DNA of 64,000 bases from NCBI RefSeq assembly GCF_011745365.1, contig NW_024468918.1, forward strand, positions 1,144,488 through 1,208,487. The letters run 5' to 3'. The notes below the pieces were generated by a model. That model searched no databases. It worked only from the letters and a program-made list of their open reading frames with translations, and was not told the DNA's origin. The translations under genes and the position numbers were made by a program. Position 1 is the stretch's first letter, and each line of letters opens with the position of its first letter. This DNA comes from Cryphonectria parasitica EP155. Taxonomy: Eukaryota > Ascomycota > Sordariomycetes > Diaporthales > Cryphonectriaceae. Shown one piece after another: positions 18,809-64,000 of the stretch.

Positions 18809-21800
18809 TCAACCTCGCTTGGTAAATATTATACCAGCCAGGTTGGTCAAAGACCCGCTCGTCAACAACTGCAATACCTGCAGGTTCACACCCAGCTCTT
18901 TGGTAATCCAGTTCCTCAGCTCGATGGCATTCAGGCTGTCCAGACCATACTTGGTGATAGGCGTTTCAGCGTCGAGTTCTTCGGTCGGCACCATCAGGAT
19001 GGAACTAAGCTTCCCCGTGAGCCCAGTGGTGATGATCTCGATAGCCTCCTCTGGCGACTTGGCTCGAGACAGAGATGTGGCGATCGAGACCTGTGCCCCT
19101 GATGACGCAGCACCACCGGCGGCGCCGTGCAAAGAGAGGACGGCCTCGCGCAAATGATTGAACTTGGCGTCTTGGGCATAGTAGGGGAGTCTCTGCGGAT
19201 CGTCACCGAGCCTCAGACCGGTCAGGCAGTGGCCTGGGAAAATGCCCTTCTCCTCGTTGCTGTCCGACCCAGGATTTCCAACGACAGCGGCAGCGATCAG
19301 AGCCAGAACTTCGGCCTCGTTCATGCTCTCGCCTCCAAGGTTCTTCAGCACTTCGTCTTGACGATCTGCGCCCGTGTCGGCCAGGTATCCGACGTCTTGC
19401 ACGGCGGTGAGATCAATCGAGGCAGCGCGAAGGCCGAGATGCTGTTGTCGATAGCGGCAGAAGGCGTCGAGGAAGGTGTTTGCGGCAGCATAGGCAGCCT
19501 GGCCGCGATTTCCCACGATTCCGGCAGCCGAAGAGAGGGCAATGAAGAAGTCGAGCGGCGGGTTGGAGGTGAGGAGGGCGTTGTGGATGTTCCACGTACC
19601 CGCCACCTTGGAGCCGATGACGGCTTGGTAATCCTCAAAAGCCATCTTTTCGAACAATACGTCCTAGAAAACAGAGAAGCCAAATGTTAATAATCCTTAA
19701 AGGTGATGAATAAAAGGAACAGAAGGACCTGGTCAGCACTTACCCTTAGCACCATACCGGCGTGTATAACACCCGCGATCTGTGGAAGCTCCGAGGAGCA
19801 AGTCTCGATGAGGCTGGTGACCTGGTCCTTCTCGGTCACATCGCAAGCCTTGACAACAATGTTAGCTCCTGCAGACTGCCTCAAGTTCTCAGCAAGCTGC
19901 TCCACTGCGCCCTCGAGTCGAGCCCGTCGAGAGACCAAGACGATATTTCTCGCGCCTCTGGCCACCATCCACTTAGAAAGAGACCTTCCCAGGCCTCCAG
20001 TACCACCGATGAGAAGGTAAGTGGCGTCGGCCCGGAAGAGAGCAGATTTGGTGCTGCTCGTGGGATGTGTTGCCTTGACTTGCTCCCCAGCCTGTGGCAC
20101 GACGACGAGTTTTCCCGTTGTTTTTCCACTCTGCAGGAGACGGAAGGCAGTTTCAACCTGAGAGATGCCAAAGACGTTGATGGGCGCAATTGGGCTGACG
20201 AGATTCTTCTCAAACAGCTTCAGGACATCACTGAACGTGGCAGCCATCTTCTTCGGCTTCTCGTTGGCAAGGACTGTCAAGTCCACAGAGCTAAAAGTGG
20301 CGTTATTGTTGAATTTGGCCATCTCCAGGCGGGTGTTCGAAGTGATATCCCTCTTTCCGATCTCGATAAAGCGACCAAAATGGGCAATGCAGTCCCATGA
20401 TTCTCGCAACAAATCACCGGCCAGGGAATTGATGATCAAGTCGACGCCCTTCCCAGCTGTTACCTCACGAATGGCCGGCCCAAAGGATGCATCGCGGCTG
20501 GAGAAAATATGGTTCTCTGGGATGCCATATTCTTTCATGATGAACTGCTTCTTGTCGGGACTGCCGACGGTGCAATAGATCGCTGCTGCTCCCAGCATCT
20601 TGGCCAGCTGGATGGCGGCCTGCCCAACGCCGCCTGCTGCTGCATGGATCAGAATCGTCTCACCCTCGTCTAGCCTTCCGAGCTCGACAAGACCGTAGTA
20701 TGCTGTGCAGTAGACAACGGGGATGGATGCCGCCGTCTCGAAGGACATGGTCGTGGGAATCCGCGCGGCGCTGGTCTCAGGACACCTGGCCACTGTGCTG
20801 TAGGCGCCGTGGGTCATGGCACATACCCTGTCGCCAACAGCCAGGCTGGCAACCTTGGGGCCGATGCGAGACACGATGCCTGCGGCCTCGATGCCGATGT
20901 ATGGCTGAGATAACTGGCCCATGGCGACCACAACGTCTTTGAAGTTCATGCCGGTGGCTCGAATCTCGATCTCTATCTCTTGGTCACCGAGCATGACATT
21001 GTTGTCAACGCCCTCCTGGTTGTTGTTGTCGTCGTCGTCATGGAAATAGAGACTGTCAAGTGCGCCCGCCGTGCCGACAGACATCTTGAGACGACGAGGC
21101 TGCGACGATGCATCTTGGACAAAGTCCTGGAGATAGGGCTCGCATTGATCAGGGTGGACCTCACGGTGGACCAAAAGGTTCATGGCATCGTCGTTGATGA
21201 TTCTTGGAACCAAGAGTGCGCCGTCCTTTTCGGCGTATTCCATGTCGTTGACCTCCTGGTTTACAGAATCAAACACTCTGGTGAAGGTCTCTAGGATGAG
21301 ATTCGTCGTTTTCTTGGTGTTTGAGAGGCTGGACGCGGGATCCAGATCAAGAGTAGCCACTGCCGCCTCTCTCTCGGATCGAACAGTCCTGCATAGTCCC
21401 ACGGCCATATTCCCGTCGGGGCTCGCTGCGTGCAGGTAGGCTCCCCTGGTGATCCACAGCACGCCAGCTGCGCCTGTCAAGACCTTCTGGAGTTGAGAGA
21501 ACCCCTGGCTGGTCAGCCTTGAGAGGATGGGCTGGTCTAGCTCGCAGATCATGACGTGGGATCTCGACAGGTCCAGGCTCTCAAGTTGGCTGTCAGGCGA
21601 AAGAAGTGAGTGGATGGCTGCAGCCTTGCCTGATCTCCTTTGGACAGCTTCTGCAAGCTGGCTCAAGAGTGGCTCGTCAGCACCTGAATTCCCAGACAAC
21701 AAGACTACCGTCTTCTCAGCCCAAGCTTGTTTTTGATGTTGGTCGGACTTGTTGTTAGAAGTAGCCTCGTCGTCATCTGACGAGCCAGCATACCCAGAAT

Positions 21801-24800
21801 CACTGTTGTTGTTCTCGACAGTAGTAGGCGTGCTGGTTCCGTCACTTGAGAGGACAGGCTCCCACTGCATCCTGAAACACAGTTCTCGGGGGTTATCGAG
21901 GGTGCCGCTCTCGTTTCTCACGGGTGTCATGCAGAGGCCAACTATTTTGATCAATGAAGAGACGGCGAGAGCGTCAGGGTGACTTTCCTTCTCTCCCTCA
22001 ACACTTGGACGAGACAGAATGGCGTCCATGTCAAAATCGGTGGCCTTGGGGTTCTTGTGGTCGGGACACCCATGACCTACAACGCGCAATTTGTCACCTG
22101 GGAGCAAGGTCGTCGATGTGGTCACATCGCGCTGTACGTGCAGCTCCTGGATGGCCGAGGGCATGTAGAGCGTTCTCATGCCCACGGACGGCCTGCCGGC
22201 ACCGAGGATCGGGAATGAGAGCTGCAGGATCTGGTCCAGGAGCGCAGGGTGAACATGGTATGGCGTCTGATACTCCATGGGCATCGTGGCTGTTGTATCT
22301 GTAACCACCGCAGCATCCACGTCGGCCACCGAGTAGGAATCACTGGACCTGATGGAGCTGAGTCTTCGGAATGTCGGACCATAAGTGGCTCCTTTACCAT
22401 CCAGGTCCTGATAGAACGTGGAGACGGGTATTTCCTCGTCGCTGCATGTTTGTTCTGCAGCCTCAATCTTTTGACGGGCTACAGCGTCGCGTTGATGGTG
22501 GGAAGCATTCTTCCTGGCCGAGATCAGGCCACGACAGTGTTCAGTCCATCCCTTGCCACCATCTTCCCAAGATAGGATGCGGAACTCATCCCATTCGTCC
22601 GAATAGGAGCGCAATCCCTCAGCATAAGGTGAACAGCAAGTCATGACCTCATAATCCTCGCCGTCCTCCATCAGCAGCGGCCTCTTGACCTGGATCTCTC
22701 GTAGGCTAAAGCTCTGGAACGCAACACCACGATGGGCCGCGCGCTGGGCTGCAGCCTCGATCGCCATGGAGACGAACCCAGCAAAAGGGAAAGTGGTCAG
22801 TGACTGCATCTTGTGGTCACGCAGCCATGGGAGGTCCTCTGTCCTGAGGACGTTTCTCCAGCTGGGTGCTATTTCGTTGGAAAAATCGGCCATATTTCCC
22901 AAGAGATCATGCCTGGGAAAGGGCTTGATACGATGTTGTCGAGACAGACGTGGCTCAGACCAATACTTCTGGCGGCACCATGGGTACGGCTTCATATCTT
23001 CGACGAGAACAGGCGGTGAGACATTTGGATCTTCCAAATTGATGTTGGCCATGTTCAAAGGCTGGCCTTTCATGTGAAGGCTCGCAGCCAATCGCAACGA
23101 GGTATTGACGGCACATTTACTCCGATACAGAACCGACAAGTAATCAATTGCCTTGTTGCTGCTGCTCGTCTGTTGTTGAGGTCCGACACCACAGCCTTTG
23201 AGAATCTGCTTGACTGGCCCCTCGAGTGCTGCATGTGGCCCAATTTCCACAATCACATCTGGAGGGCTCTCGGTGCACAGCTGCTTGACCGATGTAGAGA
23301 ATCGTACTGGCTTCGTGAGGTTTTCGACCCAGTACGTCGCGTCGACGAGAGAAGAGGTATCCTGGATCTTGGTTCCACGCAGAGACGAGAAGAACTCCAC
23401 CTGGCGACATTCACTGGGCGAGGCAGGAGAGGAGGATGATGATGATGCGTTGGTTGCAGTAGACAGTGTCTCGTGTATGCTCTCATAGTAGTCATCCGAG
23501 ACAAGTCCCATGTGTGGCGAATGATATGCAACGTCGACCCGAAGCTTTCTGTGGAAGAGTTGTTCCGACTCGATTATTGTATCCAGCGCATCAATAGCAG
23601 CCTCATCGCCTGAGATGGTCACCGAGCTGGGCGAGTTCTCACAGGCCACCACCGCAACGCCATCGGTAAGCTGCTGTAAAAGAGGCTTCATTGCTTCTGG
23701 GCCAGCACCTACTGCCATCATGGAGCCTCGCAGGTCTGGGTATCGCGCCCTCATCTTGACCACAGCCTGACCGCGCTGGTAGGCAACGCACATGGCCGCT
23801 TCCAGGGTCAGCGCTCCAGCACCATAAGCTGCGCCGATCTCCCCACTGGAGTGGCCAGTTACGGCAGAAGGCGAGACGCCCCAGGAACTGAGAAGGTCCG
23901 TGAGGGCTAGCTGAATGGCCACGCATGCAGGCTGGCTGATGTGGGCCTCACCCACCCGAGAACTGGTCTTGTCCCGGGACAACTCCTCTACCAGAGAGAA
24001 GTCGGCACCCAGGCTCTGGAGACAGCGATCTGCAGTATGCATTGTGCTGGCAAACACAGGATACGCACCCATCAGCTCACGACCCATGGCGTGCCACTGA
24101 GCCCCCTGTCCAGTGTACACGAAGGCAATCTTTGGGGCTTGCTGGGCAGCTCGGACCGGTCTGGCATCGGAAGAGCTGACGGCCTCGGCCAGTTCAGAAG
24201 CGGATGACGCAACGAGGCCGATACGCCACGAGAGCTGAGACCGTCTGTGGCAGAGTGTGTAGGCCAGGTTCCGGAGGAGCTGCTTCTGGAAGACCTCGGG
24301 ATGCTGTTCCAGATAAATGGAGAGGTTCTTCATGGTGCTCTTTGCAGCAACCTCGTCGTTGGCCGACAGTACGAACAGGCGCTGTTTGGCCGTGGACACG
24401 GGCCTTGCCTGGCCTGGCCCGGAGTGATAAAGTGGTGGTCTTGCGAGCACGCAGTGCGCATTGGATCCGCCAAAGCCAAAGTTGTTGATGCTGATGTACT
24501 TTTTATTGGAGGGCCACGGCTGCTGAAACGTGGGAACCTTCATATTCCACTCTCGGAGTGGAATATTCTCGTTTGGCGTCTCAAAATTCGTGTTGGGGAG
24601 GATGAAGCCCTTTTCCAACATCATGGCGGCTTTTATGACGGCCACAACTCCGCTGGCGTTTTCAAGATGGCCGACATTGCTCTTGACAGATCCCAGGTAG
24701 AGGGGATTCTTGGCTGTTCTGCCCTCAGAGAAGACATTGTGGATGGCTGTGGCCTCGATGGGATCACCAACTTTGGTGCCTGTCCCGTGTGCTTCGACGA

Positions 24801-26053
24801 AACCAACATCCTGCGAGCTGATGCCGGCTCGGGCGTACACTTCACGCATCAGCTGCTCCTGGGCCTTTCCACTCGGCGAAGTGATCCCTAAATAGTAATA
24901 TTGTCGTCAGAAACCGTTACAAGAAAGATGTTTAGACAGCATGGGACGATTTCAACGTACCGACAGTTCTGCCGTCTTGACCCACACCCGAGTTCACAAT
25001 GACAGACCGGATTCTGTCATTGTCTTTAACAGCGCGATGCACAGGCTTGAGGACCAAAACACCCACTCCATCGCCACGGGCAAATCCAGACTTGGCACGG
25101 TTGTCAAAGGCAAACGTCATGCCCTGGTCAGAGAATAGTCTATACAAGACTTGTTAGAAACGATCTGGAATAATCATGGAGGCCAAGCAAGGACTGACCT
25201 GGACAAACTCATCGAGATCCAGTCTCCAGGCTGAAGATTAAGATGACATGCTGCCACAATGGCCTGGTCACACTCCCCATTCCGAATGCTCAGCACTGCT
25301 TGATGCAGGGCGTAGAGACTTGAGCTACAGGCGGTGTCGACGCTGCAGCTAGGGCCTCTGAGATCGAAATGGTGCGAGATGCGTCCAGCCTGGATCGACT
25401 GATGATTTCCAGTGGCATCAAACATAGGAGTCTGCTCGAGATCCCGCAGTGTACCCAGGCGATAGTCGGACGCGGCACCACCAACGAAGACTCCGATCTT
25501 CTGACCTGGAAGTGACTCCTTGGGGATACCTGCGTTCTCTAAAGCTTCATAGGTACACTCTAGCAGGAATCTTTGTTGTGGGTCTGTTCATAGAGCCACA
25601 TGGCGTCAGCAGTCTGCGAGATAATGATACAAGAAAGGGGGATAACATGCCCATAGCTTCTGCTTCAGCCCGTGTGATGTTGAAGAAGGGTGCATCAAAC
25701 ATGGCCGGGTCTTGTTTGATGAAGTAGCCGCCACGAGAGTTGAAGGCACCCTTCCTGGCAGGGTTTGGGTGCCAGTGGGCGCCTTTGCTGAATCGATCCT
25801 CAGGGATCTCAGACCATCCATTTCGCCCTCTGCAAATCATCTGCCAGAAATCTTCTGGAGAAGAGACATCCCCCGACACCCGACAGGACATGCCTATGAT
25901 GGCAATGGGAGCAAGGGTATTGGGGGCGACGCCGTCGCCAGTGCTATGAGGATGAAGAACATGATTGTTGTCGGCTTGTACATCATGACCATCAACACAA
26001 GGCAGCTGGGCCTTTGCCTGAGCGTCTGTGTCCTCCATATTGAGCTTCGCCAA
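18809..26053 (-). CDS. Highly reducing polyketide synthase, KS-AT-DH-ER-KR-ACP, without C-methyltransferase
   Basis: Iterative type I synthase making a reduced acyl chain. Five exons: 26053-25651, 25583-25199, 25139-24961, 24887-19744, 19663-18809; 2321 aa. KS: DTACSSS (Cys about 220), EAHGTGT (His about 356), SNVGHLE (His about 396). AT: FVYTGQGAQW and GHSSGE (Ser about 669). DH: DHKMQSLTTFP (His about 1014; the usual Gly of HxxxGxxxxP is Ser) and the Asp of HPALLDQ about 1207. A 280-residue linker follows with no methyltransferase motifs. ER: HAAAGGVGQAAIQL about 1737. KR: GGTGGLGRSL, with Tyr about 2095 in AAYAAANTF. ACP: YGLDSLNAIE, phosphopantetheine Ser about 2280. There is no release domain; the divergent FSH1-type hydrolase is the likely partner. 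The first intron appears to be GC-AG. Start ATG 26053 precedes LAPIAIIGMSCRV. Confidence 0.95.
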
Positions 26054-27997: not shown

Positions 27998-29133
27998 ATG
28001 AAATTTCTGTGTCTTCCCGGAGCGTATGGAAGCGCCAAGGTATGTGGTTCACCAGCAAACCTCAGGAAAAAGAGTGGGCACACACGATATGAATGATGGC
28101 ACTAACATATCACGCTTCGTGATTCCGTCAGAACTTTCAAGTTCAACTGGGTCCTTTCGTCACAGCATCAGAGGAGAGAGGAAATACGAAATTCACCTGG
28201 ACTCAGGGAACTCGCAAGGTCGAGCCTCCTCCTGGATTTGAAGACTACTTTGGTGCTGGGCCGCTGTGGCGATTCGTCGACTATGACGGGAGCAGTACTT
28301 TCGACATGCTGGATGAGATTCGAGATTTTCCTGAGGGCTCCAACGCCGAGGAGAGGATGCGGCTCCTGATGGGCGATGAGCCAGCTTACGCGACGTCCAG
28401 CGTTCAGGAGGCAATCCGCAGGCTGCTCGACATGATCGATGCCGATCCTGAGATCGAGGTATGTACTTACCCTGACCCTCTTTTCTTCTTGGCTTGCAAT
28501 TCACAATCTTGCTCACCAACACTTCTCAGGGCATTCTGGGCTACTCCGAGGGCGCAACGACAGCTGCTACCCTCCTTCTGGAGGAGCGCAGGCTGTTGCA
28601 AGAAGGCGGCAGACTGCCAAGAATCAAGGTAAGCCGTTGTCGCAATCAATCAGCTGCTTTTTTTTTTTTTTTTTTTTTTTTTTTCAGCTCCCCCCCGCCT
28701 AGCCAAGCCGAGCTGTATATTGCATTTTATTGTGGCTGACGGAGAAATAATACAGCGTGCCATTTTCTTTGCCGGATGGCCGCCACTGTCCATGGCGGGG
28801 GGCAAAATACACGTCTTGCTCGCTGACCAAAGCCACGACATCATTGACATCCCCACGCTCCACATTATCGGTTGCAACGACCCGTATATTGCGGGGGCCG
28901 TGGCGTTGTACAACATGTGCGATCAGGAGACCGCCGAGATGTTTGACCACGGAAAGGGCCATACTGTGCCAAGAGATTCCATGACCATCCGTGAGCTCTG
29001 TGATGCCATCGAGCGGCTGATTGCCCGGCCGGAGAAGGCAGGTGATCCTCGCAGTGAGCTGGAAGACCTCAAGATACTCAAGCCTGTCCATGACCCGGTA
29101 GCGGGAGCCATCTCCGCTCTTACAGGTGCTTAG
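27998..29133 (+). CDS. FSH1/LovG-type serine hydrolase (probable polyketide-releasing thioesterase)
   Basis: Alpha/beta hydrolase of the FSH1 (DUF341) family. Family members such as LovG free the acyl chain from HR-PKSs. Four exons: 27998-28039, 28132-28458, 28530-28628, 28756-29133; 281 aa. Start MKFLCLPGAYGSAK is split from NFQVQLGPF by intron 1, the position usual in this family. Nucleophile in GYSEG (Ser about 129), acid in GCNDPY and base in GKGHTVPRD complete the triad. Intron 3 contains a 27-base T run (28658-28684) and a possible alternative acceptor just after it. It is divergently placed from the PKS, fitting co-expression and the lack of a TE in that enzyme. Whether the product is hydrolysed or handed to the acyltransferase is not visible. 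Confidence 0.9.
28658..28684. repeat. Poly-T run in intron 3 of the hydrolase gene
   Basis: 27 consecutive T bases, followed by CAG and then a C-rich stretch. It forms an extreme polypyrimidine tract upstream of a possible cryptic acceptor at 28685-28687; the acceptor that preserves the reading frame and family sequence is at 28755. Confidence 0.9.
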
Positions 29134-30030: not shown

Positions 30031-31767
30031 ATGACGGAGAAACGTCGTTCGCTGTTGTTCTTCACCAACAGTGAATGGGGCCAGGCCAATGTTATCTTGG
30101 CAACCATTCACGAATTCCTCATTCTCGACGAGTTCGACATTCATCTGGCTTCCTATTCGGCATTGGAGCCCAGACTCCATGATCTTCTGGAAACACATGC
30201 CGCTTCATATCCACGGCCCTTGGTGATTTCCAACGGCCAGGATGGAAAGAAAGCCCCGGCAGAGAGACCCAGCATCACATTCCACACCATCCCAGGACTT
30301 TCGGTCGCACAATTATGCCATCGCGATGGCGTTGCCAATTCTCTACCGCACAAGCCAGGGCTGAAGGGCGGGGTGGCCTCGTATGCTCGTCTCGAGGACT
30401 TTTTCTTTCGGCATACGGTAGATGAATACATGGAGCAGCAGCGATATTCCAAACAAGTCATCACTCAGACACAACCAGTCTTGATCCTCGCTGAACAGGG
30501 CTTCTCTCCTGGTCTGGATGCATGCATGGAGCTGAATCAGCCCTTCACAGTCTTGTCTCCGAACTCTTTCAAAGATTTTGAGCAGCGATTTCAGCCTTTG
30601 CTAAGAATCTTGTGGAAGTACCCTGCGTGAGTTTGATTATCCCCCTGACCCACTGGCCGCGCCGTCATTGGAAGCTGGCAACGATTGTGTATCAAATCTT
30701 TGAGACCTCATGACCTCGCTGACTTGGGAGAGTTTAATAATCCATTGCAGTCTCGCGTCTGCGTTCCCGTTTCCGGTACCCTTGGGGATGGTTCCAGCAA
30801 ACGTCTATCTATGGGTTCGAATGATGACGACCATTGCGGTCTCTGCATCCACCCGAGGTTCGCGTCTTCACACACTCAACAAAGGAAGACACGCCAACGG
30901 ACTGGAAGGACCGCCACCAGTGATGAGTGCCCTGAAGAAGGCGTCGCACATACTCTGCCCCTCTCTGCCAGAGCTCGACTTTCCCATGCTCGTGCGCCCA
31001 ACGACCATTGGCTGTGGACCCATAGTTCTGCCTGCACGACCCGTCAGTGAGGTCGACCCGGAATTAGATACCTGGCTGGGCCGCAGTTGCATGAAAACGG
31101 TACTGGTTAATCTGGGGACGCATTACAGCACGGACTCAGCCCTTGCCCTGGAGGTGGCCCGAGCTCTCAAAAGTGCACTGGACACGTTTCCCCATGTGCA
31201 GATCCTCTGGAAAATGATCCCACAGGGCGAGGGACAGCAGGAGAACATTCACACGGTCTTTGGCGACGATCTACTGCGCAATTCCAGGATCCGCATCGAG
31301 AAATGGCTGAAGCCTGATCCTGTCGCCCTTCTTGAGACGGGAAAAGTCATTGCTCAAGTTCATCATGGCGGGGCCAACACGTACTTTGAGTGCTGTCGGT
31401 GAGTGTTTGCATTGTGCGACGTACACCTTTTGACCAATCACTTGCGACATGCCATGGGTGGAAAGCTAACACTAAGAACTTGTCCCCATTCACCAGATTC
31501 GGTGTCCCTCAAGTCATTTTAGGGGCCTGGTGGGATACCTACGAGTATGCCGCGAGAGTCGAGTATCTCGGCATTGGCGTGTTTGCCAACAAAAAGGCTG
31601 CCCCCCGCGCCAAGACTGCAGAGCTTCAGAAGGCTCTGCTTCGCGCTGTAAGTGATGATAACATGCGCGCCAAGGCCAATGATTTGGCGGCAGTTTGCAA
31701 ACGGTATGGAGAGGGCAGAGTTCGGGCTCGGGATCGTATTCGTGAGTTTATTGGTCATGTAGTCTAG
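30031..31767 (+). CDS. UDP-glycosyltransferase, GT1 family
   Basis: Transfers a sugar from a nucleotide-sugar to a small lipophilic acceptor, GT-B fold, cytosolic. Three exons: 30031-30626, 30751-31398, 31497-31767; 504 aa. The N-terminal half (FFTNSEWGQANVILATIHEFL) is the acceptor domain with the usual early His replaced by Gln in GQAN; the C-terminal half carries VLVNLGTHYS, VAQVHHGGANTYFE and GVPQVILGAWWDTYEYAARV, the donor-binding PSPG-like segment (HGG, then a W/D pair). The second and third exons are joined inside FECCR/FGVPQV. No signal peptide or C-terminal membrane anchor is seen, unlike animal UGTs. In the cluster it is the natural candidate to glycosylate the terpene. The sugar cannot be told from the sequence. 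Confidence 0.9.
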
Positions 31768-35295: not shown

Positions 35296-35558
35296 GGTCG
35301 GATATAAATTCAATGCTACCAGGTCTGGTGCAAAATTTGGATCGTCTATAGACACCCCTGAGTCTCCTTCATCCTGGCGAGAGCTTCCCATTTTGTAAGC
35401 AGATAAAATCGATATCAGCGTTGAAAGCCCATCTGGGCGGCAGAACATTCCTTGATTTTTCCGGCCTCAAGCTAGCCACTGGGGTTTGTCCGCATAAAAT
35501 GAGTCTAGTCTCTGCTTTAATCAATGGCCTGTCGAGTTCTGGTTCTACCAAAGGCATC

Positions 35559-37070: not shown

Positions 37071-38078
37071 CAACAAGAACTGGTGTCTGAAAATATCGAG
37101 ACATGGGTACATTCGGCGAGCAAAAATAGCGACCAGCACTCTCTCGTAACAGACTCATATAACTTGGGTGACCTCAGGGCGCAGCAGGTCTAAAGGCATG
37201 AACGCGTAATGAAGGGGAACCCCCGAAGGAGGGGCCGTTCCCGACATCTGGCTGAGGACATCGATGTTGAATGAAGATTCTTGACCCCGTAACAGCCAGA
37301 AAGATGAACAACTGATAGAGTTGATGAGCTTCGGTTAGTATCCTCTGGCGGTGTGTGAGATACTACGGTTCTCGAAACTAGTACGAGGGAGTGTGTGGCG
37401 ATGAAATCGACAATGACAATGGAACATTCCGTAAATAACTCTTGAATTGGCTGGCTTCTACACGTGGGCCTCGTAATTAGTGGGCCGCCAAGGCGTCTGG
37501 GTATGCGATTTAAGTCGAATCAGCCGCAAAATAATATCGACAGCGCTACGTATTTCTGAATGCCGAGCTGTGGTCATGAACAAAGTTGTAAATTATGCAT
37601 GACGCTAATGCTGTTCATCGCCTTCACACAAACGCTGCATGAAACTTTTGACCGGAGCGCAGCAACGTTCGAGTGAAAGTACGTAATAATGGATGTGTTC
37701 TGCGCTCTATATGCGTACTAGGAGTACGCATCCGGTCAAGCGGCGGAAGTGTTCTTTTACTTACTCGGAGATAGGCTTTGGCTGATACATAGGCTCGAGT
37801 TTTTGTATAGTAGGTGACGAACTATCAATCTCGCGTAACCCACTGTCATTCTTTTTCAAACACGGGATGTGGGGTTGTTAACGTATGCAGCACTATGAGG
37901 ATAAACTTGTACAATGAAAAAGCATTTATAAAAACAGCACGCCTTTTCATTCTTCCTAGCACTGGTGGTCAAATATTTTGCTATTGGCATCCGAGTCACT
38001 CTTTTGTTGTGCTTACGTTCCTTCTGTTACTTACTGTCTGTCACTCTTTCATTTGCGTGCCAATCATCGGACAATACG

Positions 38079-52982: not shown

Positions 52983-55518
52983 TCACCTCGCTTGGGAGAG
53001 GCCAACAATCACAGACTCTCTCCAAGCCCAAAGTGCTGCAAAGACTGGCCCCGGGCCCACCAAGGCTTGTCCCAGGCCGACAGCTCCAGCGGCTTGCAGC
53101 GCACTCCTCGTAGTGACGTACCCGAGCCTGCGCAGCTCGAAGACGCTGTAAAGACTCCACACGGCTACGGCCGCCCAGAAGATCTGAAATTCGGAGGGCG
53201 AGACCCTGTTCGCAGCAAGCAGGACATGCGGCAGCTTCTCGAAAACTCCGGCGAGCTGGGATTCTTGGCCCGGCAGCAACCTGTAGGCAAGGTTGCTCAC
53301 GAGCGTGAGCGCCGAGGTAGCAAGGTATCCACACAGAAGCGGCATGAAGTCCTCAGTGCTGATTGTCCACCCAGCACCTCCGATCGATGAGGTGACCGGC
53401 ACACTCCGGGGCACGAACGCCAATAGGACCATAACGAGGACTGGGCACCAACGCCATGCTATGACGGCTGCCTGTTGGGCTGCACCGTTGGGAACGTATG
53501 CGAGAGTTACAGAAAGAGCATATGCGAGACAGAGACCAGGGAACAGAGCGTTGGCGACGGCTGGGTCGACGAACCGGCCCGTGGTGCGCGTGTATACCGT
53601 CTTCTTGGTAGCATATAAGCTGAGCAGGAAGTATAGGGGGCCGGCCGCACCGAGTCCCAGAAACTGATTAACCGTTAAGGTGACAATCGAAGTTGCAATG
53701 CCCAATTTGTTTCCGTTCCGATAGGCTTCGACTAGGAAAATATAGACAATTGGGACCATATTGGCGAGGAAGAAGACTTCGGGAGTGTCGTACCGCCGCG
53801 GCGTCTCGGACGCAGTTTCGAAGGGAACCTGAGGGGTAAAGCTAGAGCGCTCCCCAGGCCCTTGGATGAGTATCTTGAAGGCCCGTTCGAAGTGTTCTGC
53901 ACCCCATGAGAATGCTTCTGGTGTGAGGGCGGCATAGAACAGGGCGGCAAATAAGAGCACCACCCCTGAGGTGACGAGAGCTGAGAATCTGGATCCTAGA
54001 GGCCGAGACGGGAGCTCATCGACGAACGGAATATAATATTCACGCTTCGGCATAGGCAGAAAATCTGCACGGTGGGCTCCCGCAAAGCACGTGGCCGGGG
54101 CGTCAAGGAGTTGCTCCATGCCCGCGATCGGGACCAGACGAGGGGTGATGTGCTCAGCAAATCGGCCCTCCATAGAGGCCAAGCTCTGCCTGGCATGTGA
54201 TTCACACATCAACTCCTGGACACGGGGCTGTCTTTGCGATTGTGTGCGGGAGAAAACCTCATGGATCTGAGCCTTGGTCAAACCCGCCGGGCTCTGCTCC
54301 AGGAGGCGCACGAGGTTTGAAACAAGGACGCCGGCTGTCTCGATGGCGCTGTTGCCGCCGTGGCCGCTGATGGGATCAACCTTCGAGCTGTTAGCTGATG
54401 TTCCAATCTGTGAGCTGCCCGCTGTGTATTTTCTTGCCTTGTGAGCCGCATCGCCGATGGTTATGATGCGATCGAAGTACCACTTCTTGAAGATATACTC
54501 TGGGATCGGCGTGAGCGTGGAGCTAATCTTGGCCTTGTACAGATCGCCAAACACGTGCTTATCTGTGAGCTGGTCGTTCCAGTGGTCCTTGACAAGTGCC
54601 TCCTCATCCTGCTTGGTATACCGAGGGAGGTCGGTTCCGTAGTGCTTTTTGTCGATCTTCTGGAAGAGGAACCAGTACACGCGGTGTCGTGGGCCGGCTA
54701 TTACTAGGTACGAGAAGCGCTTGCCGAACACAGTTGTTGCGGTAGCCTTTTCAAAATCTTCTACGATCGAGATGCCAAAGATACACTTGGACTCCGTCGG
54801 CAGACATCCTACAAGGCGTGAGAGACTGGTCCTTCTGGAGCTCCAGCGCAACTTGATTCAAGGGGCGAGAACTCACCTGCTCGCTCGGCAGCAGAGATGT
54901 ACCCAGGCTCCAGTGCTTCCGAGATCCGCCACAACTCGCTGCGCACCTTGCTGTGCACGCCGTCAGCGCCTACCAGAATGTCACCTGAGAAAGTAGCCCC
55001 GTCCGTCGTCTTGACCTCTACCGAGTTAGGATGCAGCTTGACTTCTGCCACCCGCTTGTTGAGGTGGACCCTATCCTTGTGCTGCAGGTTCCGCCAAAAA
55101 ACCTCGAGCACCATCTGGCGGTCTACAAAAATGAAGTTGTATCCATATCTAAAGAAAATAGATTGTCAGCCAAAGAACCCGTGTATGTAGGCCGACCCGT
55201 GGAGCAGACCTACCGATTTCTCTCCTGGTCGCCTATGTTCTCCATGGCCTGAATCTCCCGCCTAGTCGTAGCACAACGGAATCGGGACCGCAGGAAGGGC
55301 TCACCGAGGAGGGCCCACATCTGGTCATAGATGCCGAGCTGGTCCATCACCCGAGACCCATTGGGCAGCCACCCGATGCTGGCGCCGACCTGGGGTGCGA
55401 TCTCGCCGTGTGCCTCGAGGATGACATAGTCAATGCCGGCTTTCTCGAGCAGAAGAGCTAGCGTCAGGCCAGCGATGCTGCCACCGGCGATGAGCACCCG
55501 GAAGGGCTTTTGTGCCAT
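52983..55518 (-). CDS. FAD-dependent monooxygenase fused to a polytopic membrane domain
   Basis: Class A flavoprotein monooxygenase. Exons: 55518-55214, 55148-54877, then 54808-52983, which itself probably contains a 57-bp GC-AG intron (54437-54381); about 781 aa. FAD motifs: [15 protein letters not shown] at the N-terminus, [14 protein letters not shown] (DG motif) and ITIGDAAHK (GD motif). Removing the 57 bp joins GDAAHK to [16 protein letters not shown], the conserved spacing. From about residue 450 the protein has no flavin motif but seven or eight hydrophobic helices, for example [73 protein letters not shown] and [17 protein letters not shown]. Related meroterpenoid and terpenoid FMOs often have a single C-terminal helix; a whole membrane domain suggests ER anchoring or a second activity such as cyclisation (inference). 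Divergent from the O-methyltransferase. Confidence 0.88.
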
Positions 55519-56816: not shown

Positions 56817-58829
56817 ATGAATCTCGTGCAGGCTGCTGATGACCCGACAGTTTTTGAAGCGTTCTCCATAAATAATGAACGACCACACAATTTAGACAGC
56901 TTAGTTCGGGTTTGTCAAATCAGCTCAGACTCAATTTCGCAGTTTAGACTCAAAGCAAGTATGTTGCAGCTTTTTAGCTAGCTATTTTAACCCAGCCCGT
57001 TTTTTGTTTTTCTATTTTTTTCTATAAAAAAAGGAACTAAGTAGGAGTCAGCTTGTCGTCAACACCCACGAGGTTGACTCCCCAAGTCCTAGCAAAACAA
57101 TATTGTGGTCAATAGTTTATTAGCGAGACTAAGCGTACTGCTGCTACTATTGGTTACTACAATCACACGCAGTGTTACATACCACAAATACGTCATCATG
57201 TGACATGGTTTACGGAACGATCTACCTACGAATATGATTGTTATTCTAGCCTTAACTCTAACTCTAGAACGCGTTTCGACAACGGGTTAAAATTATAACC
57301 CCACCTTTAGTAAGCACTGCAGTATCCTACGCCAAAAAAAAAGCCTATTTTTAGCACTGCTCTTGTTAGTGTAAACTTTTGAAGTATGCTCAGGCCAGAA
57401 ACTCCTAGCCGGCGAAACAGGCTCCCGTGAGGCACTTGTGGCCTCCGCCCGTGAACTGCTTCATCAGGCCGAGCGCCCTATGGAGAGTGTGGCCTGGTCA
57501 TTCTGGGCTCAGGTAAAAACCCAATCAACTATAGAGTATGGCTGGCGAGGATAGATGCTGACGCCGCTGTTCCTTCTACAAGCCTGCTCGCACTGCTGCA
57601 ACGCGTATCGCGGTAGATCTGAAGATTTTCGAGACTGCCATCGCGGAAGATGGGCGGCCCAAGACTGCCGAGGAGCTCGCTGCTCCCACGGGAGCCTCGC
57701 CGGGGCTCGTCGACCGCATCGCCCGCATGTGTGTGTCCATGCGCATGATCGATGGGAAGGGGTCAGGTCTCTACGCGCCGAACCCTCTGACTCACACGCT
57801 CGTGCTGCCAGAGTGTGCTGGCGGTATCGTTTTCCATTATGATTGCACAGTGCTCACCTGGGCTAAGCTGCCCGAGTATTTGAGAAGGACCAACTTTCAA
57901 AATCCCGAGGACACACGCAAGGGGCCATGGCCATATGCCAACGGTGTCGACTATCCCTTCACAGAGCAGAACCCAAAGGACAACCCTGTGGCGTTCCATG
58001 CCTTCCACAATTATATTCAGTATGTGTATCATATCTGGTTAACTCCGAGAAGCTCTGCTTTGAACAATGTCAAGTCAACTTCATCCTTGAATAACAAATA
58101 CATCCACTAGAACTACAAGAGCAATGCAGCTGACTATGGCGTAAATAGTGGGATGCGCAAGCACCGGCCTCTTTGGACAGATATGTATCTTTGCAAAGAG
58201 TATCTTGTTGATGGACTGAAATCGGAAGGAGATTCATCAGCTTTCATCGATCTGGGTGGTAGTATGGGCGACATATTGCAAGGCAAGACACACTGCCGCC
58301 CCATTCCGAATTCTCTGACCCGAGAGTATCAAAGAGAGATAGTGCTGACATTTTCTAACCTCTAGAACTGAGGAGAGACATTCCTAGCTATACCGGCCGC
58401 CTCATTCTTCAGGAGCGACCACATATTATTGCCCTGGCTAAATCCAAGGGCATAGACGCCGATGGACGCATCGAGGCACAGGCACATGATTTCTTCACCC
58501 CGCAACCAATCAAGGGCGCAAGAGCATACTACATGCGCTCCGTTCTTCATGACTGGCCGGACGAGAAGTGCAGGGAGATTCTCGCACAGCTGAAGGCCGT
58601 GATGGAACCAGGCTATTCAAAGATCCTGCTTAATGAGTACATGCTGGATAATGACAGGCCAGACTGGCGGCCTCTTTCGCTCGATCTTCTCATGATGGTG
58701 GTCAATGCTGCCTCTGAGCGCTCGGAGCGCCAATGGCGGGATCTGATTACCAGTGCTGGTCTGAAGAGTACGGGAATCTTCAGCAACGGCGACGAGGGAA
58801 CTGAGAGTGTGATAGAGGTTATGCTATAG
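56817..58829 (+). CDS. SAM-dependent O-methyltransferase
   Basis: Fungal class I O-methyltransferase (Methyltransf_2 type). Core exons: 57394-57512, 57583-58023, 58111-58282, 58366-58829. The N-terminal part (ALVASARELLHQAERPME, then PARTAATRIAVDLKIFETA) is the dimerisation winged helix; FIDLGGSMGDIL is the SAM site; HDWPDEKC holds the general-base-type His; the end is LITSAGLKSTGIFSNGDEG. A first exon at 56817-56958 (starting MNLVQAADD) fits in phase across a 435-bp intron and gives 445 aa, but the long intron makes this tentative. The intron at 58283-58365 appears to be GC-AG. The 58023/58111 junction uses a weak donor (GTGTAT). In a glycoside cluster it could methylate the sugar or the terpene. 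Confidence 0.85.
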
Positions 58830-59263: not shown

Positions 59264-60683
59264 CTACTTTCCCAACACAAGACCAGGGGCCACCGGCTCC
59301 ATGTAACGGGGAGTTGTGCGGCTCCAAAGCTCATTGCCGCTCATCTGGAATTGGAGGCCACGCATATATTCTCGGATGGTAGGGCTGCACCTGCCATCGG
59401 CGTTGAGCAGTCTGTCCTGCAGGGCGTTATGAACCAGCTCCCATTCACGCACCATGGACCACTGAGGGCAGTTAGCAGAGGAAACATTGCCAATGTATCA
59501 GTGGGTTGTGCTCAGATTGGGTGAGAGGTGCTTACCAGGACGCGCTTGGTGGCGGATACGTCCAAGCCAGTCTCGGTGGCCAGGACTTTGACGGCCGAGC
59601 ACAAAAATGACCCCTCGGCATGGCCCGTCTTCGATGCCAGCACCTCTTTCTCAAAGCTGTAAATATCATTCACGATGGAGAGATGCTTGGCGCAATTCTC
59701 CTCGGGATCCCGCAGCATCGCAAGCTCAGCCGGCGTAGGGCGTAGGTCCATCGAGAAGCGCATGAGGGCAGACAGTAGCCTATTAATGCATGTTAATCCT
59801 GGGTATCGAGTTGTGCAGATGAGTAGGCAGAATAGGAGTCGTTTCTGAAGATCAGAATGGGGGTAGGGCAAGGGAACACATACGCTTTGCCGACGTCCTT
59901 TTCACGGTACCGCAGATACTCGCCCAGCTCCTTGATGGTCAGCCGGACCTTGTCGGTCTGCGAGCGCATGAAGACAAAGGTTGGCTCCAGCACCTCGTTG
60001 GCCAGCTCCAAGTCGTGTGCCCGCATGCTCTCCCACAGGTCATAGATGACAAACTCGGCCGGTATGGATCCTATTCATATCAAATTGTGAGTGTCTCCTC
60101 ATCGTTGCCTTTCTTCTTCTCTTGACATGCAGCAGAGCTGCAAGGAGGAAACATACTGTCTGGGGTAGCATATTCGGGGCCCTTGGACAGCTCTATCAGC
60201 CTGTTGTTGAGCTTCTCGCCATCGGAGAAGGACATGTCCTCGAGAATGTCTGCAAAATTGAGAAAAACGGTCAGCACAACATTGCCTGGCTTGTATGTAG
60301 GACTGCTGAGGTAGATGCATCTTCAAAATGCGGGGACACCCACCGTCGATGAGGAACAAGACCGTAAGTAGGCGGCAGGCAAAATGAATCCGTTCGTCCT
60401 TGGCCAGGGGAAAGTACAAGCACGTCACACGAGAGAAGCCCGCCTTGAGAAAGGTAGACCGGGCACGGTCGTCAGTGAAGTTCCAGTGCTCAAGGAAATA
60501 GCCATCGACCTCTCTGGCGACCTCTTCGGCCCGTGGGTGAATCTTGGGCGCCCAGTCCGACGGCGGAACCTTCCATGTGAGCGAGGCCTGCACTTTAGTT
60601 GTAACCTCATTTCCGTTGAGACTCTCGTCCCCGTCCCATTTCAAGGTGACGGGTTCTGGGCGGGTTTCCACTTGAATACTCAT
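59264..60683 (-). CDS. Class I terpene synthase
   Basis: Ionises a prenyl diphosphate and cyclises it, cytosolic. Five exons: 60683-60344, 60249-60157, 60070-59884, 59779-59536, 59461-59264; 353 aa, the size of fungal monodomain class I cyclases. The first splice rebuilds the Mg-binding FLIDDILEDMSF near residue 114 (DDxxE/D); the second Mg site is NDIYSFEKEVL (NDxxSxxKE) near residue 247, and a C-terminal RTTPRY carries the Arg-Tyr pair. There is no prenyltransferase domain, so the diphosphate must come from elsewhere. Substrate (C15 or C20) cannot be told from the sequence. Start ATG 60683 (MSIQVETRPE); the open frame continues upstream but is a Lys-rich leader. It sits among P450s, an FMO, an O-methyltransferase and SDRs, so it is the likely scaffold enzyme of the cluster. 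Confidence 0.93.
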
Positions 60684-61226: not shown

Positions 61227-62346
61227 CTATCTATCTCCTTCCTCGGGACGGAAATCCGTCGCGGCCTGCTGCAAGCGTGTGAGCCTGTCGTTCTCCCTGC
61301 CCATCCAGAACGGGCGCAAGTCGGCTGTAGGCTCCTCGACCTCAGTGTAGGTATCGCCCAGGGTCAAGATCACGCGCCCGTTCCACCTGTTTCGCGCCGA
61401 CAGCACGTTGTCGTCGGCGTTGTTGCTGTTGTCGACATTGCGATCTCGGCCATATGCCTGAACCCGCCGTGTCTGCTTCGCCACCGCCGAATACACCAGA
61501 GCACGGCCCACAGAATGCGCATCACTGACTGGCAGGCCCTGTGCGCGGATCGGGGCCGCCAGATGAGCCGGCAGGAGATTTGTGATGGTTGCTGCTGGCG
61601 CGACACCATTGATGGTGATGTTGTCACGGATGATTACCGAGCGGAGCGCACGAATGAGGCCGACGAGCTGTCGGTATGATGATGATGATGATGATCATAA
61701 TAATAAGTCAACAGAACTTGGCAGTCGAGTTTCTCACGCTTCTCTCTTTTCATCTCTCTCTCTCTCTTCCTCGAAGCGTGTGTCCATTGGGGGGTTGGGG
61801 GAAACAGCTCACCGCCAGTTTTCCGCTCGAGTACACGGGCAGAGACTGCTCTGGAGCATACCCAGAGGCGCTTGTGGTGATGACGATACTCCCTGGCGTC
61901 TTGTCCCTTCGCATGCGGCTCCAGGCCAGCTTGACGACATTGTACACACTACGCACGTTGACGTCCAGCACCCGATACGCAGGTTCCGCCAGCAACCCAT
62001 CGGCATCTAGACGGTCAGCAAAGTAATCCGCCTCCTCGGATACGCCGGCGTTGGCGAAAACGTAGTCGATGGGGCCGTCCACACTGTCTATAGCGCCGCG
62101 CAGCTGCTCCCAGCTCGTCATATCACAGCGGTGAAAGTGAACGCTTCGTTCCAGCGGATCCAGGCCACCCTCCCCCTCTTCTTTCTCCTTCGCTGGGCGA
62201 TTGATGTCGAGCACGTGCACGGTGGCTCCTTTCTGAGCCAGAAGGCGCACAGCTGCGAGACCGATGCCTGATGATCCGCCGGTGATGATAGCGGTTTTCC
62301 CCTGCAGCAGAGGAATGTCGCTGTCTTGGATGTTGAGTGATGCCAT
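61227..62346 (-). CDS. Short-chain dehydrogenase/reductase
   Basis: NAD(P)-dependent oxidoreductase of the classical SDR type. Two exons: 62346-61813 and 61667-61227, joined by a 145-bp intron that contains an (ATG/CAT)n repeat; 324 aa. TGGSSGIG near residue 23, LDIN, NAGV near residue 100, ITTSASG with the catalytic Ser, and VYSSGK with the Tyr/Lys pair. After the junction ([14 protein letters not shown]) comes [14 protein letters not shown], the usual SDR segment. The C-terminus is about 50 residues longer than the family norm and polar. Codirectional with the terpene synthase and the edge P450. Resembles fungal hydroxysteroid/15-PGDH-like SDRs that oxidise alcohols in terpenoid pathways. 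Confidence 0.9.
61676..61695. repeat. (ATG)n triplet repeat in the SDR intron
   Basis: Six or seven ATG/TGA units inside the intron, next to the acceptor of the second exon. Confidence 0.8.
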
Positions 62347-62667
62347 TTCGTTTGGTGTGTGTATGTGTGTGTGTGCGTATGTGTGTATGAAGATGCCTAC
62401 ACCAGTTACAGAATTGAGATGAAATGCAGATTTCACGCTTGAGTGGAGGTGATGGAGGAGGGAGCGCTGAGACCTGTGCAATAAATAGATCCATTCTGTG
62501 TCTGTTGCAGATTCTCCGGGACTTTCCATTTTCAGTCAAAACATCTCTCTGCTACCTGCTACGTCCTCTTTCTGTGTGTCCCTGGCCCCATCCCTTCTGT
62601 ATCTTTCACACTCCCGCCCCTTTTCTGACTCTCCACATGCTGGGCCTTTGACCTCTCGTCCTCCTTA
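62347..62667. other. Intergenic region between SDR and edge P450
   Basis: 321 bp; contains a (GT)n-rich microsatellite at about 62351-62387 in the SDR leader and a pyrimidine-rich stretch. No gene. Confidence 0.5.
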
Positions 62668-64000
62668 TTACCTAGCGTTTTTGGTAGGTGTGCTGACCCT
62701 CACCCACAGTGATGGCTTTCTCCACAACGTGAGCATGCTGGAGTCGCGGTGCCAGTCCACCTCAGTGTTGACCAGTTCCAGATCGTATGTCCACAGAAGC
62801 TTGGCCAGAACCGTGCGCATTTCCATCCATGCCAGGCTACATTTTGTTTCAGATAACATAGATTAGCATAATCTGTCCTGCCATGTTTGGTGGAGGGGGC
62901 CATGGTGGCACGCAAGACTTACTTCCTGCCAAGACAACCTCTTGGGCCGACGGAGAAAGGCTGTGTCGCAGCCAAAATATCCTCTGACTGTGGATCCGTT
63001 CCAAGCCACCGCTCCGGCTTGAAGGCCAAAGGCTCAGTAAAGTTCCTGGGGCTGAGGCTTGCCGCAACTGGGTTCGTGCTCACGATGGTCTATGAAATTG
63101 GACGAGATCAGTCTGGAGCTTCAAGGTCAGGACAGACAGCACTGCCTAGATGGGAAGGGCTGGGAGATGAGAGGGGTAGGAGAGGAGAGGAGCACTAAAT
63201 CCTCCGATGTGGTGATTCATGCCATCAAGGTCTGATCGTCTTACCCCGGCTGGCAAGAAATGGCCGTCCACTGTATCACCACCCTCGGGCACCTCTCGCG
63301 GCAGTGCAAAAGGCAGGGGAGGGTAAACTCGGAGGCCCTCCAGAAGGACGGCCCTGAGGTATTTCAGCGATAGGGTAGATGAGGCACTGATCTCTGCGTA
63401 GGACCGAAACTGCTTGCGGATCTCATGTTGTAAACTCGCCAGGACGGCATTGTTTTTGAGCAGATGGTACAGCACACACGCCAGCGCCGTGGCCGTTGTC
63501 TCGCTGCCTGCAATGACAAAGTCGGAGGCGTGGGCTGCCAGCTGCAGGTCCGACACCTTTTGCGGGTCTCTCTGCTCCAGGATACGCGTCATGAAGTCCT
63601 TGCGGGCCGAATCTTGCCGGGCAATTCTCCTTCATTTCGCCCGACGCACACTCTCTCTCGGTCAGCAAAGGCCTCTATACGGACTGGTGAAGAAAGGTGG
63701 GCGGGGAGTTGGAGTAGTTTCGACCTACTTTTCAGTGAGCTCCACGGCCAGGTCCTCGTTCTTCTTGGTCTCCTCGGTCAGCTTTGCAATCTTGCCTGGC
63801 ATCAGCATCATGAAGATGTCCGCGGCGAGGGGGAACCGCTTGAATGTGTCTGCTAGTGCCCCCTGGCGCAAGGCGCCCATGGCGATTGAGATCCAAGGAT
63901 GAGGTTGATCTGGATGAAAAACGAGGATGAAAGACCCCAAGTTAGCCATGATTAACATCATGCCAGCCTTGCCCGTATTCTGGGGCAAATATGCAGACAC
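62668..64000 (-). CDS. Cytochrome P450, C-terminal part (N-terminus beyond the right edge)
   Basis: Microsomal-type P450. Visible exons: 64000-63729, 63629-63245, 63089-62923, 62836-62668; 330 codons plus stop. Motifs in order: KDFMTRILE, I-helix DFVIAGSETTATAL, LLEGLRVYPP (ExxR), LPREVPEGG, FKPERWL, heme loop FSVGPRGCLGRNLAWMEMR. The last splice rebuilds GRNLAW exactly. The pattern is that of the large fungal family with the GPRxCxGRNLAxxEMR loop that serves many toxin and terpenoid pathways. Since it runs off the window, the cluster probably goes on to the right. Confidence 0.93.

What the first reader, a model, noticed from the sequence alone, without database searches (positions are those of the whole stretch)
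18809..64000. Candidate hybrid polyketide-terpene-glycoside gene cluster
Seen: HR-PKS, stand-alone LovG-type hydrolase, GT1 glycosyltransferase, HxxxD acyltransferase, three P450s, BBE-type oxidase, two SDRs, membrane-fused FMO, O-methyltransferase and a class I terpene synthase within 45 kb. Known: sordarin-type antifungals are diterpene glycosides whose methylated deoxy-sugar can carry a polyketide ester. Inference: this locus makes an oxidised terpene whose sugar is methylated and acylated by the PKS product. A gene for the prenyl diphosphate and one for a deoxysugar are not in the window and may lie to the right. The same parts could also make an acylated sesquiterpene glycoside.
Basis: partly seen in the sequence, partly recalled or inferred. 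Interest (0 to 1): 0.88.

Follow-up and report, generated by a model that had tools for sequence, protein, structure and literature searches.

The report
Two adjacent fungal metabolite gene clusters
In the chestnut blight fungus the window holds a sugar-and-fatty-chain gene set next to part of a larger gene set that probably makes an oxidised sesquiterpene carrying a branched fatty chain; it is not a sordarin-type antifungal, and the terpene's likely polyketide partner lies just outside the window.

Summary
The listed genes are present; those assembled are open. The window is Cryphonectria parasitica EP155, its right edge 85 kb from a contig end with telomere-like repeats. The terpene synthase is of aristolochene-synthase type (PDB 1dgp, E 5e-124), so the core is a C15 eremophilane, not sordarin's C20 skeleton. 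To the right there is no prenyl diphosphate synthase or deoxysugar gene but a second oxidase, two acyltransferases, a transporter, regulators and a second highly reducing PKS (PKS2, 78.9-87.5 kb) with a C-methyltransferase. Relatives of the synthase and of PKS2 share a contig in 15 of 26 other species found in both hit lists; relatives of the window's PKS (PKS1) in 0 of 8. PKS1 follows the fungus's own order, Diaporthales; the synthase and PKS2 group with Sordariales/Xylariales. Best reading: two neighbouring clusters. Left (18.8-35.3 kb): unbranched, glycosylated, acylated polyketide. Right (about 50-92 kb): eremophilane esterified with a methyl-branched polyketide, the kind proposed for eremoxylarins and noted, unassigned, in Annulohypoxylon truncatum. 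No product has been shown.

The parts
18809..26038 (-). PKS1: HR-PKS, KS-AT-DH-ER-KR-ACP, no C-methyltransferase domain found; 5 exons, 2316 aa (left cluster)
   Evidence: Pfam domains; exon model; depositor model P0241 99% identical
27998..29133 (+). FSH1/LovG-type serine hydrolase with GYSEG motif (left cluster; PKS1 release inferred)
   Evidence: PF03959 E 1.7e-23; model
30031..31767 (+). GT1 glycosyltransferase, 510 aa, 3 exons (left cluster)
   Evidence: PF06722 and PF00201; splice sites; remote PDB matches to glycosyltransferases
33500..35295 (+). HxxxD acyltransferase AT0 (HTLMD) (left cluster)
   Evidence: PF02458 E 3.9e-6
37965..39890 (+). tannase/feruloyl esterase between the two clusters
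   Evidence: PF07519 E 5e-103
40888..42859 (-). cytochrome P450 a; cluster membership undecided
   Evidence: PF00067 E 3.7e-46; splice sites
43305..44505 (-). SDR2, seen as exon-like frames only, not assembled; membership undecided
   Evidence: reading frames; first frame PF00106 E 1e-11
45534..47245 (-). BBE-type FAD oxidase 1; membership undecided
   Evidence: PF01565 E 7.5e-19
48213..49506 (-). fungal-rhodopsin-domain membrane protein (partial model)
   Evidence: PF20684 E 7e-18
50880..52366 (+). cytochrome P450 b (probable left part of the eremophilane cluster)
   Evidence: PF00067 E 2e-28
52983..55518 (-). FAD monooxygenase with hydrophobic C-terminal part (eremophilane cluster, probable)
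   Evidence: PF01494 E 6.3e-22 over residues 7-346 of 781; model
57480..58829 (+). O-methyltransferase (eremophilane cluster, probable)
   Evidence: PF00891 E 4.8e-23; GC-AG intron
59264..60683 (-). TPS: aristolochene synthase family, 353 aa, motifs DDILED and NDIYSFEKE; no other match in the genome
   Evidence: PDB 1dgp E 4.8e-124; spliced model; genome search; relatives; tree
61227..62346 (-). SDR1 beside TPS
   Evidence: PF00106 E 2.5e-26; model
62708..64000 (-). cytochrome P450 c; runs past the window edge (frames to about 64770, first exon not assembled). The cluster goes on outside the window: BBE oxidase 2 at C10:1209956-1211806, two acyltransferases within C10:1212455-1215790, PKS2 with C-MeT at C10:1223364-1231954
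   Evidence: PF00067 E 5.6e-62; frames; outside genes: PF01565, PF02458/PF22664 and PF08242, depositor model P0121 99% identical

Best explanation
Two clusters lie side by side. Right cluster (about 50-92 kb in window coordinates, so largely cut off by the window): the aristolochene synthase cyclises FPP to an eremophilane (aristolochene-type) hydrocarbon; P450s, SDR1, the BBE oxidase at 65.5 kb and the FMO oxidise it; PKS2 makes a methyl-branched reduced chain; one of the two HxxxD acyltransferases puts that chain on a hydroxyl of the eremophilane and the other may add a second, small acyl group; the O-methyltransferase may cap a hydroxyl or acid. Left cluster (18.8-35.3 kb): PKS1 makes an unbranched reduced chain, the FSH1/LovG-type hydrolase releases it, the GT1 glycosylates it and the HxxxD enzyme acylates it, giving an acylated polyketide glycoside. 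Shown by tools: gene content, domain make-up, synthase family, contig sharing and gene trees. Inferred: every reaction, the pairing of enzymes and the products.
For: TPS is closest in the PDB to aristolochene synthases (4.8e-124, against 1.5e-11 for fusicoccadiene synthase, run with a first model that kept one extra stretch; the corrected model is). PKS2 has a C-MeT domain, PKS1 none; a SAM-motif pattern is found in 104 of the 120 listed PKS2 relatives and 0 of the 120 listed PKS1 relatives. Contig sharing by exact contig length: 17 contigs between the TPS and PKS2 lists, 1 (this contig) between TPS and PKS1; by species 15 of 26 against 0 of 8 (one-sided Fisher 0.004; about 0.9 of 26 expected by chance, 3.7 with five paralogues each). 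In Cercophora sp. LCS_1 the two locus numbers are 2952 and 2959. Trees: PKS1 in a fully supported clade of the seven rows labelled Diaporthales; PKS2 with Achaetomium (Sordariales); TPS in a fully supported ten-row clade with A. truncatum (Xylariales). Published parallels: putative eremoxylarin cluster of Xylaria hypoxylon with PKS and AT (PMC10686045, whole text); A. truncatum cluster with HR-PKS, aristolochene-synthase-like cyclase, two ATs, three P450s, FMO (PMC8403587, section 30), whose species here has a 73% TPS and a 54% PKS2 relative on one 353,509-base contig.
Against: No metabolite data and no co-expression data for these genes. Sharing a contig is not adjacency, and only the longest contig of each protein cluster is shown. 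In 11 of 26 species the TPS and PKS2 relatives are on different contigs, and the three closest PKS2 relatives (P0122, P0123, P0124) are on contigs without a listed TPS. The shared-contig label is scattered on the TPS tree (11 changes; shuffled mean 16.1, 0 of 500 shuffles as low). 0 of 8 for PKS1 is a small number. The PKS2 tree carries warnings (long branches P0142/P0150 meet; P0121 has an unusual composition). No shared promoter motif passed correction for 2,816 patterns. No long gap separates the two halves. GT1, LovG and AT0 were not tested for linkage to PKS1, nor FMO, OMT and P450s for linkage to TPS.
Confidence: 0.7

Rival explanations
1. One merged supercluster: both PKSs, the GT1 and the terpene genes act together on a single eremophilane that carries a sugar, an unbranched chain and a methyl-branched chain.
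For: The genes lie within about 74 kb with no obvious housekeeping gene between them in my models; three acyltransferases for two PKSs; a glycosyltransferase acting on a fungal sesquiterpene is known from the brasilane cluster (PMC8403587, passage).
Against: Different histories of PKS1 against TPS and PKS2; no contig sharing of PKS1 with TPS relatives in 8 species; TCGN5CGA sites in 4 of 9 left and middle promoters (PKS1, LovG, AT0, P450a) but 0 of 13 right-hand ones (post hoc, weak).
Confidence: 0.13
2. One reading: the window's PKS1 makes the chain and the GT1 the sugar of an acylated sesquiterpene glycoside; PKS2 belongs to something else.
For: The block of PKS1, stand-alone hydrolase, GT1 and HxxxD enzyme ends 24 kb from TPS.
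Against: PKS2 lies 18 kb from TPS with two acyltransferases between them, and it is the PKS whose relatives share contigs with aristolochene synthases; PKS1 relatives do not.
Confidence: 0.08
3. Three units: left glycoside cluster, a middle oxidation/methylation unit (P450a to OMT, 41-59 kb) of unknown partner, and a core TPS-PKS2 cluster from 59 kb rightwards.
For: Membership of the 41-59 kb genes rests only on position and on likeness to the gene list of the A. truncatum cluster.
Against: An FMO and three P450s are listed in the A. truncatum cluster; none of the middle genes scanned is a scaffold-forming enzyme.
Confidence: 0.08
4. Sordarin-type diterpene glycoside.
For: Only the enzyme classes: GT, methyltransferase, P450s, FMO, PKS, AT.
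Against: TPS is of aristolochene-synthase type; no GGPP synthase on the contig (not decisive alone, since compact sordarin clusters lack it too, PMC9095873, passages); no GDP-mannose dehydratase match on the contig.
Confidence: 0.01

Closest known systems
Putative eremoxylarin D cluster of Xylaria hypoxylon (PMC10686045, whole text read)
   Same: Aristolochene cyclase, P450s, SDR, acyltransferase and a PKS thought most likely responsible for the polyketides esterified at O-1.
   Different: That gene set could not be aligned here; the one listed X. hypoxylon synthase (P0017) is 65% identical and in another clade, and it may not be from that strain. Here two ATs, an FMO and an OMT.
Unassigned meroterpenoid cluster of Annulohypoxylon truncatum (PMC8403587, section 30 read)
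   Same: HR-PKS, aristolochene-synthase-like cyclase, two acyltransferases, three P450s, FAD monooxygenase, three oxidoreductases; an A. truncatum synthase (73%) and a PKS2 relative (54%) are on one contig.
   Different: That these two proteins are the ones of that cluster is inferred; gene order not compared; product unknown there too.
PR-toxin (prx) cluster of Penicillium roqueforti (PMC10144355, passages read)
   Same: Aristolochene synthase with SDRs, a quinone oxidase, P450s and an acetyltransferase.
   Different: No PKS in its gene table; no orthology test made here.
Sordarin/hypoxysordarin (sdn) cluster (PMC9095873, passages read)
   Same: Enzyme classes GT, methyltransferase, P450s, FMO.
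   Different: SdnA cyclises GGPP to the diterpene cycloaraneosene; this synthase is of aristolochene type.

Membership tests
Sordarin-type diterpene glycoside cluster | cycloaraneosene (C20) synthase | tested here: not met
   TPS best PDB match aristolochene synthase 1dgp E 4.8e-124; fusicoccadiene synthase only 1.5e-11. SdnA itself was not compared.
Sordarin-type diterpene glycoside cluster | dedicated GGPP synthase in the cluster (in sdn; absent from compact clusters) | tested here: not met
   3 PF00348 matches found in the genome, on C1, C9 and C6
Sordarin-type diterpene glycoside cluster | GDP-deoxysugar genes | tested here: not met
   0 of 18 PF16363 matches on C10; a reductase-like gene at 110-111 kb touches the family below its cut-off (21 of 27 bits)
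Eremophilane-polyketide ester cluster (eremoxylarin / A. truncatum type) | aristolochene synthase | tested here: met
   by sequence family; activity not tested
Eremophilane-polyketide ester cluster (eremoxylarin / A. truncatum type) | HR-PKS in the cluster | tested here: met
   PKS2, 18 kb from TPS, outside the window; contig sharing in relatives
Eremophilane-polyketide ester cluster (eremoxylarin / A. truncatum type) | acyltransferase(s) | tested here: met
   two PF02458/PF22664 proteins between TPS and PKS2
Eremophilane-polyketide ester cluster (eremoxylarin / A. truncatum type) | the P450 and SDR common to aristolochene clusters | tested here: inconclusive
   an SDR and then a P450 lie beside TPS; orthology to XhL6/XhL7 not tested
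Eremophilane-polyketide ester cluster (eremoxylarin / A. truncatum type) | eremophilane ester as product | not testable with these tools
   needs metabolite analysis
Aristolochene synthase | Asp-rich and NSE metal-binding motifs | tested here: met
   DDILED and NDIYSFEKE in the spliced protein; NSE region aligned to 1dgp; motif names recalled
HR-PKS with stand-alone release (LovG logic) | FSH1-family hydrolase beside the PKS | tested here: met
   PF03959 at 27998-29133 beside PKS1; release activity not tested

The most novel reading that the evidence does not exclude
Both PKSs and the GT1 serve one pathway, so that the chestnut blight fungus makes a glycosylated eremophilane carrying two different polyketide chains from two PKSs, formed when an incoming terpene-PKS2 cluster landed beside a resident Diaporthales PKS1-glycoside cluster near a chromosome end. 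Searches for eremophilane glycosides by four phrases gave one off-topic paper (listing only) and for aristolochene synthase with HR-PKS four papers, none of which, as far as seen, reports this combination.
Probability: 0.12. Interest if true: 0.62.

Novelty: new member of a known kind. Interest (0 to 1): 0.4.

Why it matters
It proposes a skeleton (eremophilane with a methyl-branched polyketide ester) for an unassigned cluster near a chromosome end of the chestnut blight fungus, whose aristolochene synthase is reported among the genes most raised by a hypovirus (PMC7379330, Table 3). It also shows by contig sharing in 15 other species (Xylaria, Aspergillus, Arachnomyces, Microsporum, Cercophora and others) that aristolochene synthases are repeatedly linked to relatives of one methylating HR-PKS. 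If that holds as synteny, many orphan PKS-terpene loci can be predicted to make eremophilane esters. And it warns that a fixed window can pair a terpene synthase with the wrong PKS.

Tried and rejected
Sordarin: rejected on the synthase family, with GGPPS and deoxysugar genes in support. PKS1 as a pseudogene (a TGA inside a KS match): rejected, the stop falls in an intron and DTACSS is intact. A common promoter motif of the right-hand genes: none of 2,816 triplet-pair patterns survives correction, best p 0.002. Literature on HR-PKS + GT + AT glycoside clusters: the 'roselipin' search gave 0 papers, the 'polyketide glycoside' search 1 review seen in the listing only; in the liamocin passages an HR-PKS and an esterase are named for the pathway and no GT (PMC11905612); the Verticillium PKS paper holds no 'glycosyltransferase' (PMC9495618). 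Cryphonectria + eremophilane: 2 papers; in PMC8545091 the word is in a cited title only (passages), PMC11433805 was seen in listings only. C. parasitica antiSMASH survey PMC7565894: passages seen, no product named for this locus in them. Co-expression from print: PMC7379330 (section 16 read, other passages) lists 'putative aristolochene synthase' (11941) among the ten most raised genes after hypovirus infection that an earlier study also found, together with two PKS entries (67771, 67772), but gives no positions; neither depositor number of PKS1 (109461) nor PKS2 (86125) is in the main text, so it does not decide the pairing. That 11941 is this TPS rests finding no second copy. Phacidium infestans has an aristolochene synthase, no link to a PKS in the passages seen (PMC10657286).
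Full report
WHAT WAS CHECKED. The window is C10:1144488-1208487 of a 43.8 Mb assembly in 17 contigs. The contig length 1,293,730 and the depositor's proteins on a contig of that length (P0001, P0121, P0241) identify it as Cryphonectria parasitica EP155, order Diaporthales. I fetched 30 kb to the left and 80 kb to the right plus the last 5.2 kb of the contig, predicted spliced genes with a home-made model and corrected the key ones by hand. GC-AG introns in PKS1 (25584-25650), FMO (54381-54437) and OMT (58283-58365) explain frames that a plain finder would break; the seven hand-spliced genes are open. SDR2 and the first exon of P450c were not assembled.

THE TERPENE SYNTHASE. The 353-residue product has DDILED and NDIYSFEKE. 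A first model with one extra stretch matched seven distinct PDB aristolochene synthase sequences at 1.2e-115 or better; the next matches are at 2.6e-15. By family this is a sesquiterpene (eremophilane-forming) enzyme; its product was not assayed. The genome search found no second copy. It found three polyprenyl synthase matches, all on other contigs, and 18 GDP-mannose-dehydratase family matches, none on this contig. Absence of a GGPP synthase alone would not exclude sordarin, since compact sordarin clusters lack it (PMC9095873, passages); the synthase family does.

WHAT LIES TO THE RIGHT. In continued window coordinates: BBE-type oxidase 65.5-67.3, two acyltransferases with a TRI-like N-terminal domain 68.0-69.5 and 69.8-71.3, MFS transporter 72.1-73.3, a putative regulator 75.3-77.7 (no Pfam match), PKS2 78.9-87.5 (C10:1223364-1231954), P450 88.3-90.3, SDR 91.6-92.5, Zn2Cys6 regulator 93.6-95.1, then further P450-like models. 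PKS2 has a C-methyltransferase (PF08242 E 4.4e-17); none was found in PKS1, which is 2316 residues long against 2622. A SAM-binding motif pattern is found in 104 of 120 listed PKS2 relatives and 0 of 120 listed PKS1 relatives. PKS2 relatives include squalestatin tetraketide synthase (43%, P0213), which makes a short methyl-branched acid (recalled).

WHICH PKS GOES WITH THE TERPENE. Each hit list gives the longest contig of each protein cluster, which serves as a contig label. The lists show the best 120 rows of 323 (TPS), 6,832 (PKS2) and 7,679 (PKS1) matches; one TPS row and three PKS2 rows have no contig. TPS and PKS2 share 17 contig labels including this one; TPS and PKS1 share one, this one. 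By species, leaving out C. parasitica and one pair whose name is cut off (Xylariaceae sp. FL16.., different contigs if the same), 26 species are in both the TPS and PKS2 lists and 15 have a shared contig. The 11 without are Xylariaceae sp. AK1471, X. hypoxylon, X. digitata, Astrocystis sublimbata, Diaporthe helianthi, Glonium stellatum, Podospora didyma, Xylogone sp., Cercophora scortea, Aureobasidium subglaciale (perhaps two assemblies) and Colletotrichum fructicola. Eight species are in both the TPS and PKS1 lists (Pseudomassariella vexata, P. didyma, G. stellatum, Drepanopeziza brunnea, Monosporascus sp. mg162, Neoarthrinium moseri, Conoideocrella luteorostrata, Cytospora paraplurivora) and none shares a contig. 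With 40 Mb genomes 0.9 of 26 would be expected by chance, 3.7 with five PKS2-like paralogues each (never 15 in a million draws); one-sided Fisher for 15/26 against 0/8 is 0.004 (which corrects). Against this: the three nearest PKS2 relatives are not on a contig with a listed TPS, and the linked synthases are spread over the TPS tree (118 of 120 rows used; 11 changes, shuffled mean 16.1).

TREES. PKS1 (39 of 40 top rows) sits in a clade of the seven rows labelled Diaporthales (Cryphonectria, Coniella, Gnomoniopsis, four Cytospora) with full support, so it looks resident in the order. PKS2 (40 of 40 top rows) pairs with Achaetomium macrosporum, Sordariales, with full support, not with Diaporthe helianthi; the tool warns of long branches at the latter and of the composition of our row. 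Orders looked up; those of other genera, Diaporthe included, are recalled. TPS sits in a fully supported ten-row clade with Podospora, Chaetomium, Rhypophila, Hypoxylon, Annulohypoxylon, Jackrogersella, Anthostomella and Xylariaceae rows, while the Diaporthe rows lie elsewhere. TPS and PKS2 thus share an unexpected relationship, possibly by transfer, that PKS1 does not.

SETTING. The contig ends in TTAGGG/CTAGGG repeats; PKS2 is about 62 kb, the window edge 85 kb and PKS1 123 kb from that end.

PUBLISHED PARALLELS. PMC10686045 (whole text) assigns a PKS- and AT-containing aristolochene cluster of X. hypoxylon to eremoxylarin D by genome comparison; of that cluster the text names only xhR1 as expressed. 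PMC8403587 (section 30) describes an unassigned A. truncatum cluster whose gene list is close to this right-hand cluster. PMC10144355 (passages) gives the PR-toxin gene list. PMC7565894 (passages) surveyed C. parasitica clusters with antiSMASH; no eremophilane is named in the passages seen. PMC7379330 (section 16 and passages) reports a putative aristolochene synthase among the genes most raised by hypovirus CHV1, with two PKS genes in the same list that cannot be placed on the genome from the text. Searches showed no report of this cluster's product; 43 and 73 were seen as listings apart from the papers named.

JUDGEMENT. The right-hand cluster is a new member of a known but scarcely characterised kind. 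The wider linkage of aristolochene synthases with relatives of one methylating HR-PKS is the part most worth following.

Noticed in passing
L031, last about 150 bases (end of C10): Contig ends in mixed TTAGGG and CTAGGG repeats, a telomere-like array.
   Followed up: partly
window coordinates 124001-140000 (L017, L018): Block with G+C of about 0.28-0.30 beside about 0.5 elsewhere, near the contig end; not analysed.
   Followed up: no
window coordinates 101505-105287 +: NACHT_N/NPHP3_N protein with 12 ankyrin-repeat stretches that look near-identical by eye, an NLR-like gene.
   Followed up: partly
window coordinates about 110300-115600 -: Pieces of a third, possibly non-reducing PKS (ACP, HTH_51, reductase-like NAD_binding_4; KS fragment with stops); introns or decay not resolved.
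   Followed up: partly
8015-12047: Neighbouring genes that look like biotin synthesis, a BioF-like enzyme and a BioD-BioA-like fusion (by eye; no family search made).
   Followed up: no
window coordinates -10771 to -7645 -: Protein with an RGS and a PAS domain in one chain.
   Followed up: no
promoters of PKS1, LovG, AT0 and P450a: TCGN5CGA pattern in these 4 of 9 left and middle promoters, in 0 of 13 right-hand promoters; post hoc and weak.
   Followed up: partly
C5:1971682-1973217: A 35%-identical paralogue of the GT1 with a 537-residue open frame.
   Followed up: no
PKS1 25584-25650, FMO 54381-54437, OMT 58283-58365: Three GC-AG introns in one region; plain GT-AG gene finders would misread these genes.
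   Followed up: yes
TPS 59264-60683: A putative aristolochene synthase of C. parasitica is listed among the genes most raised by hypovirus CHV1 (PMC7379330 Table 3); presumably this gene.
   Followed up: partly
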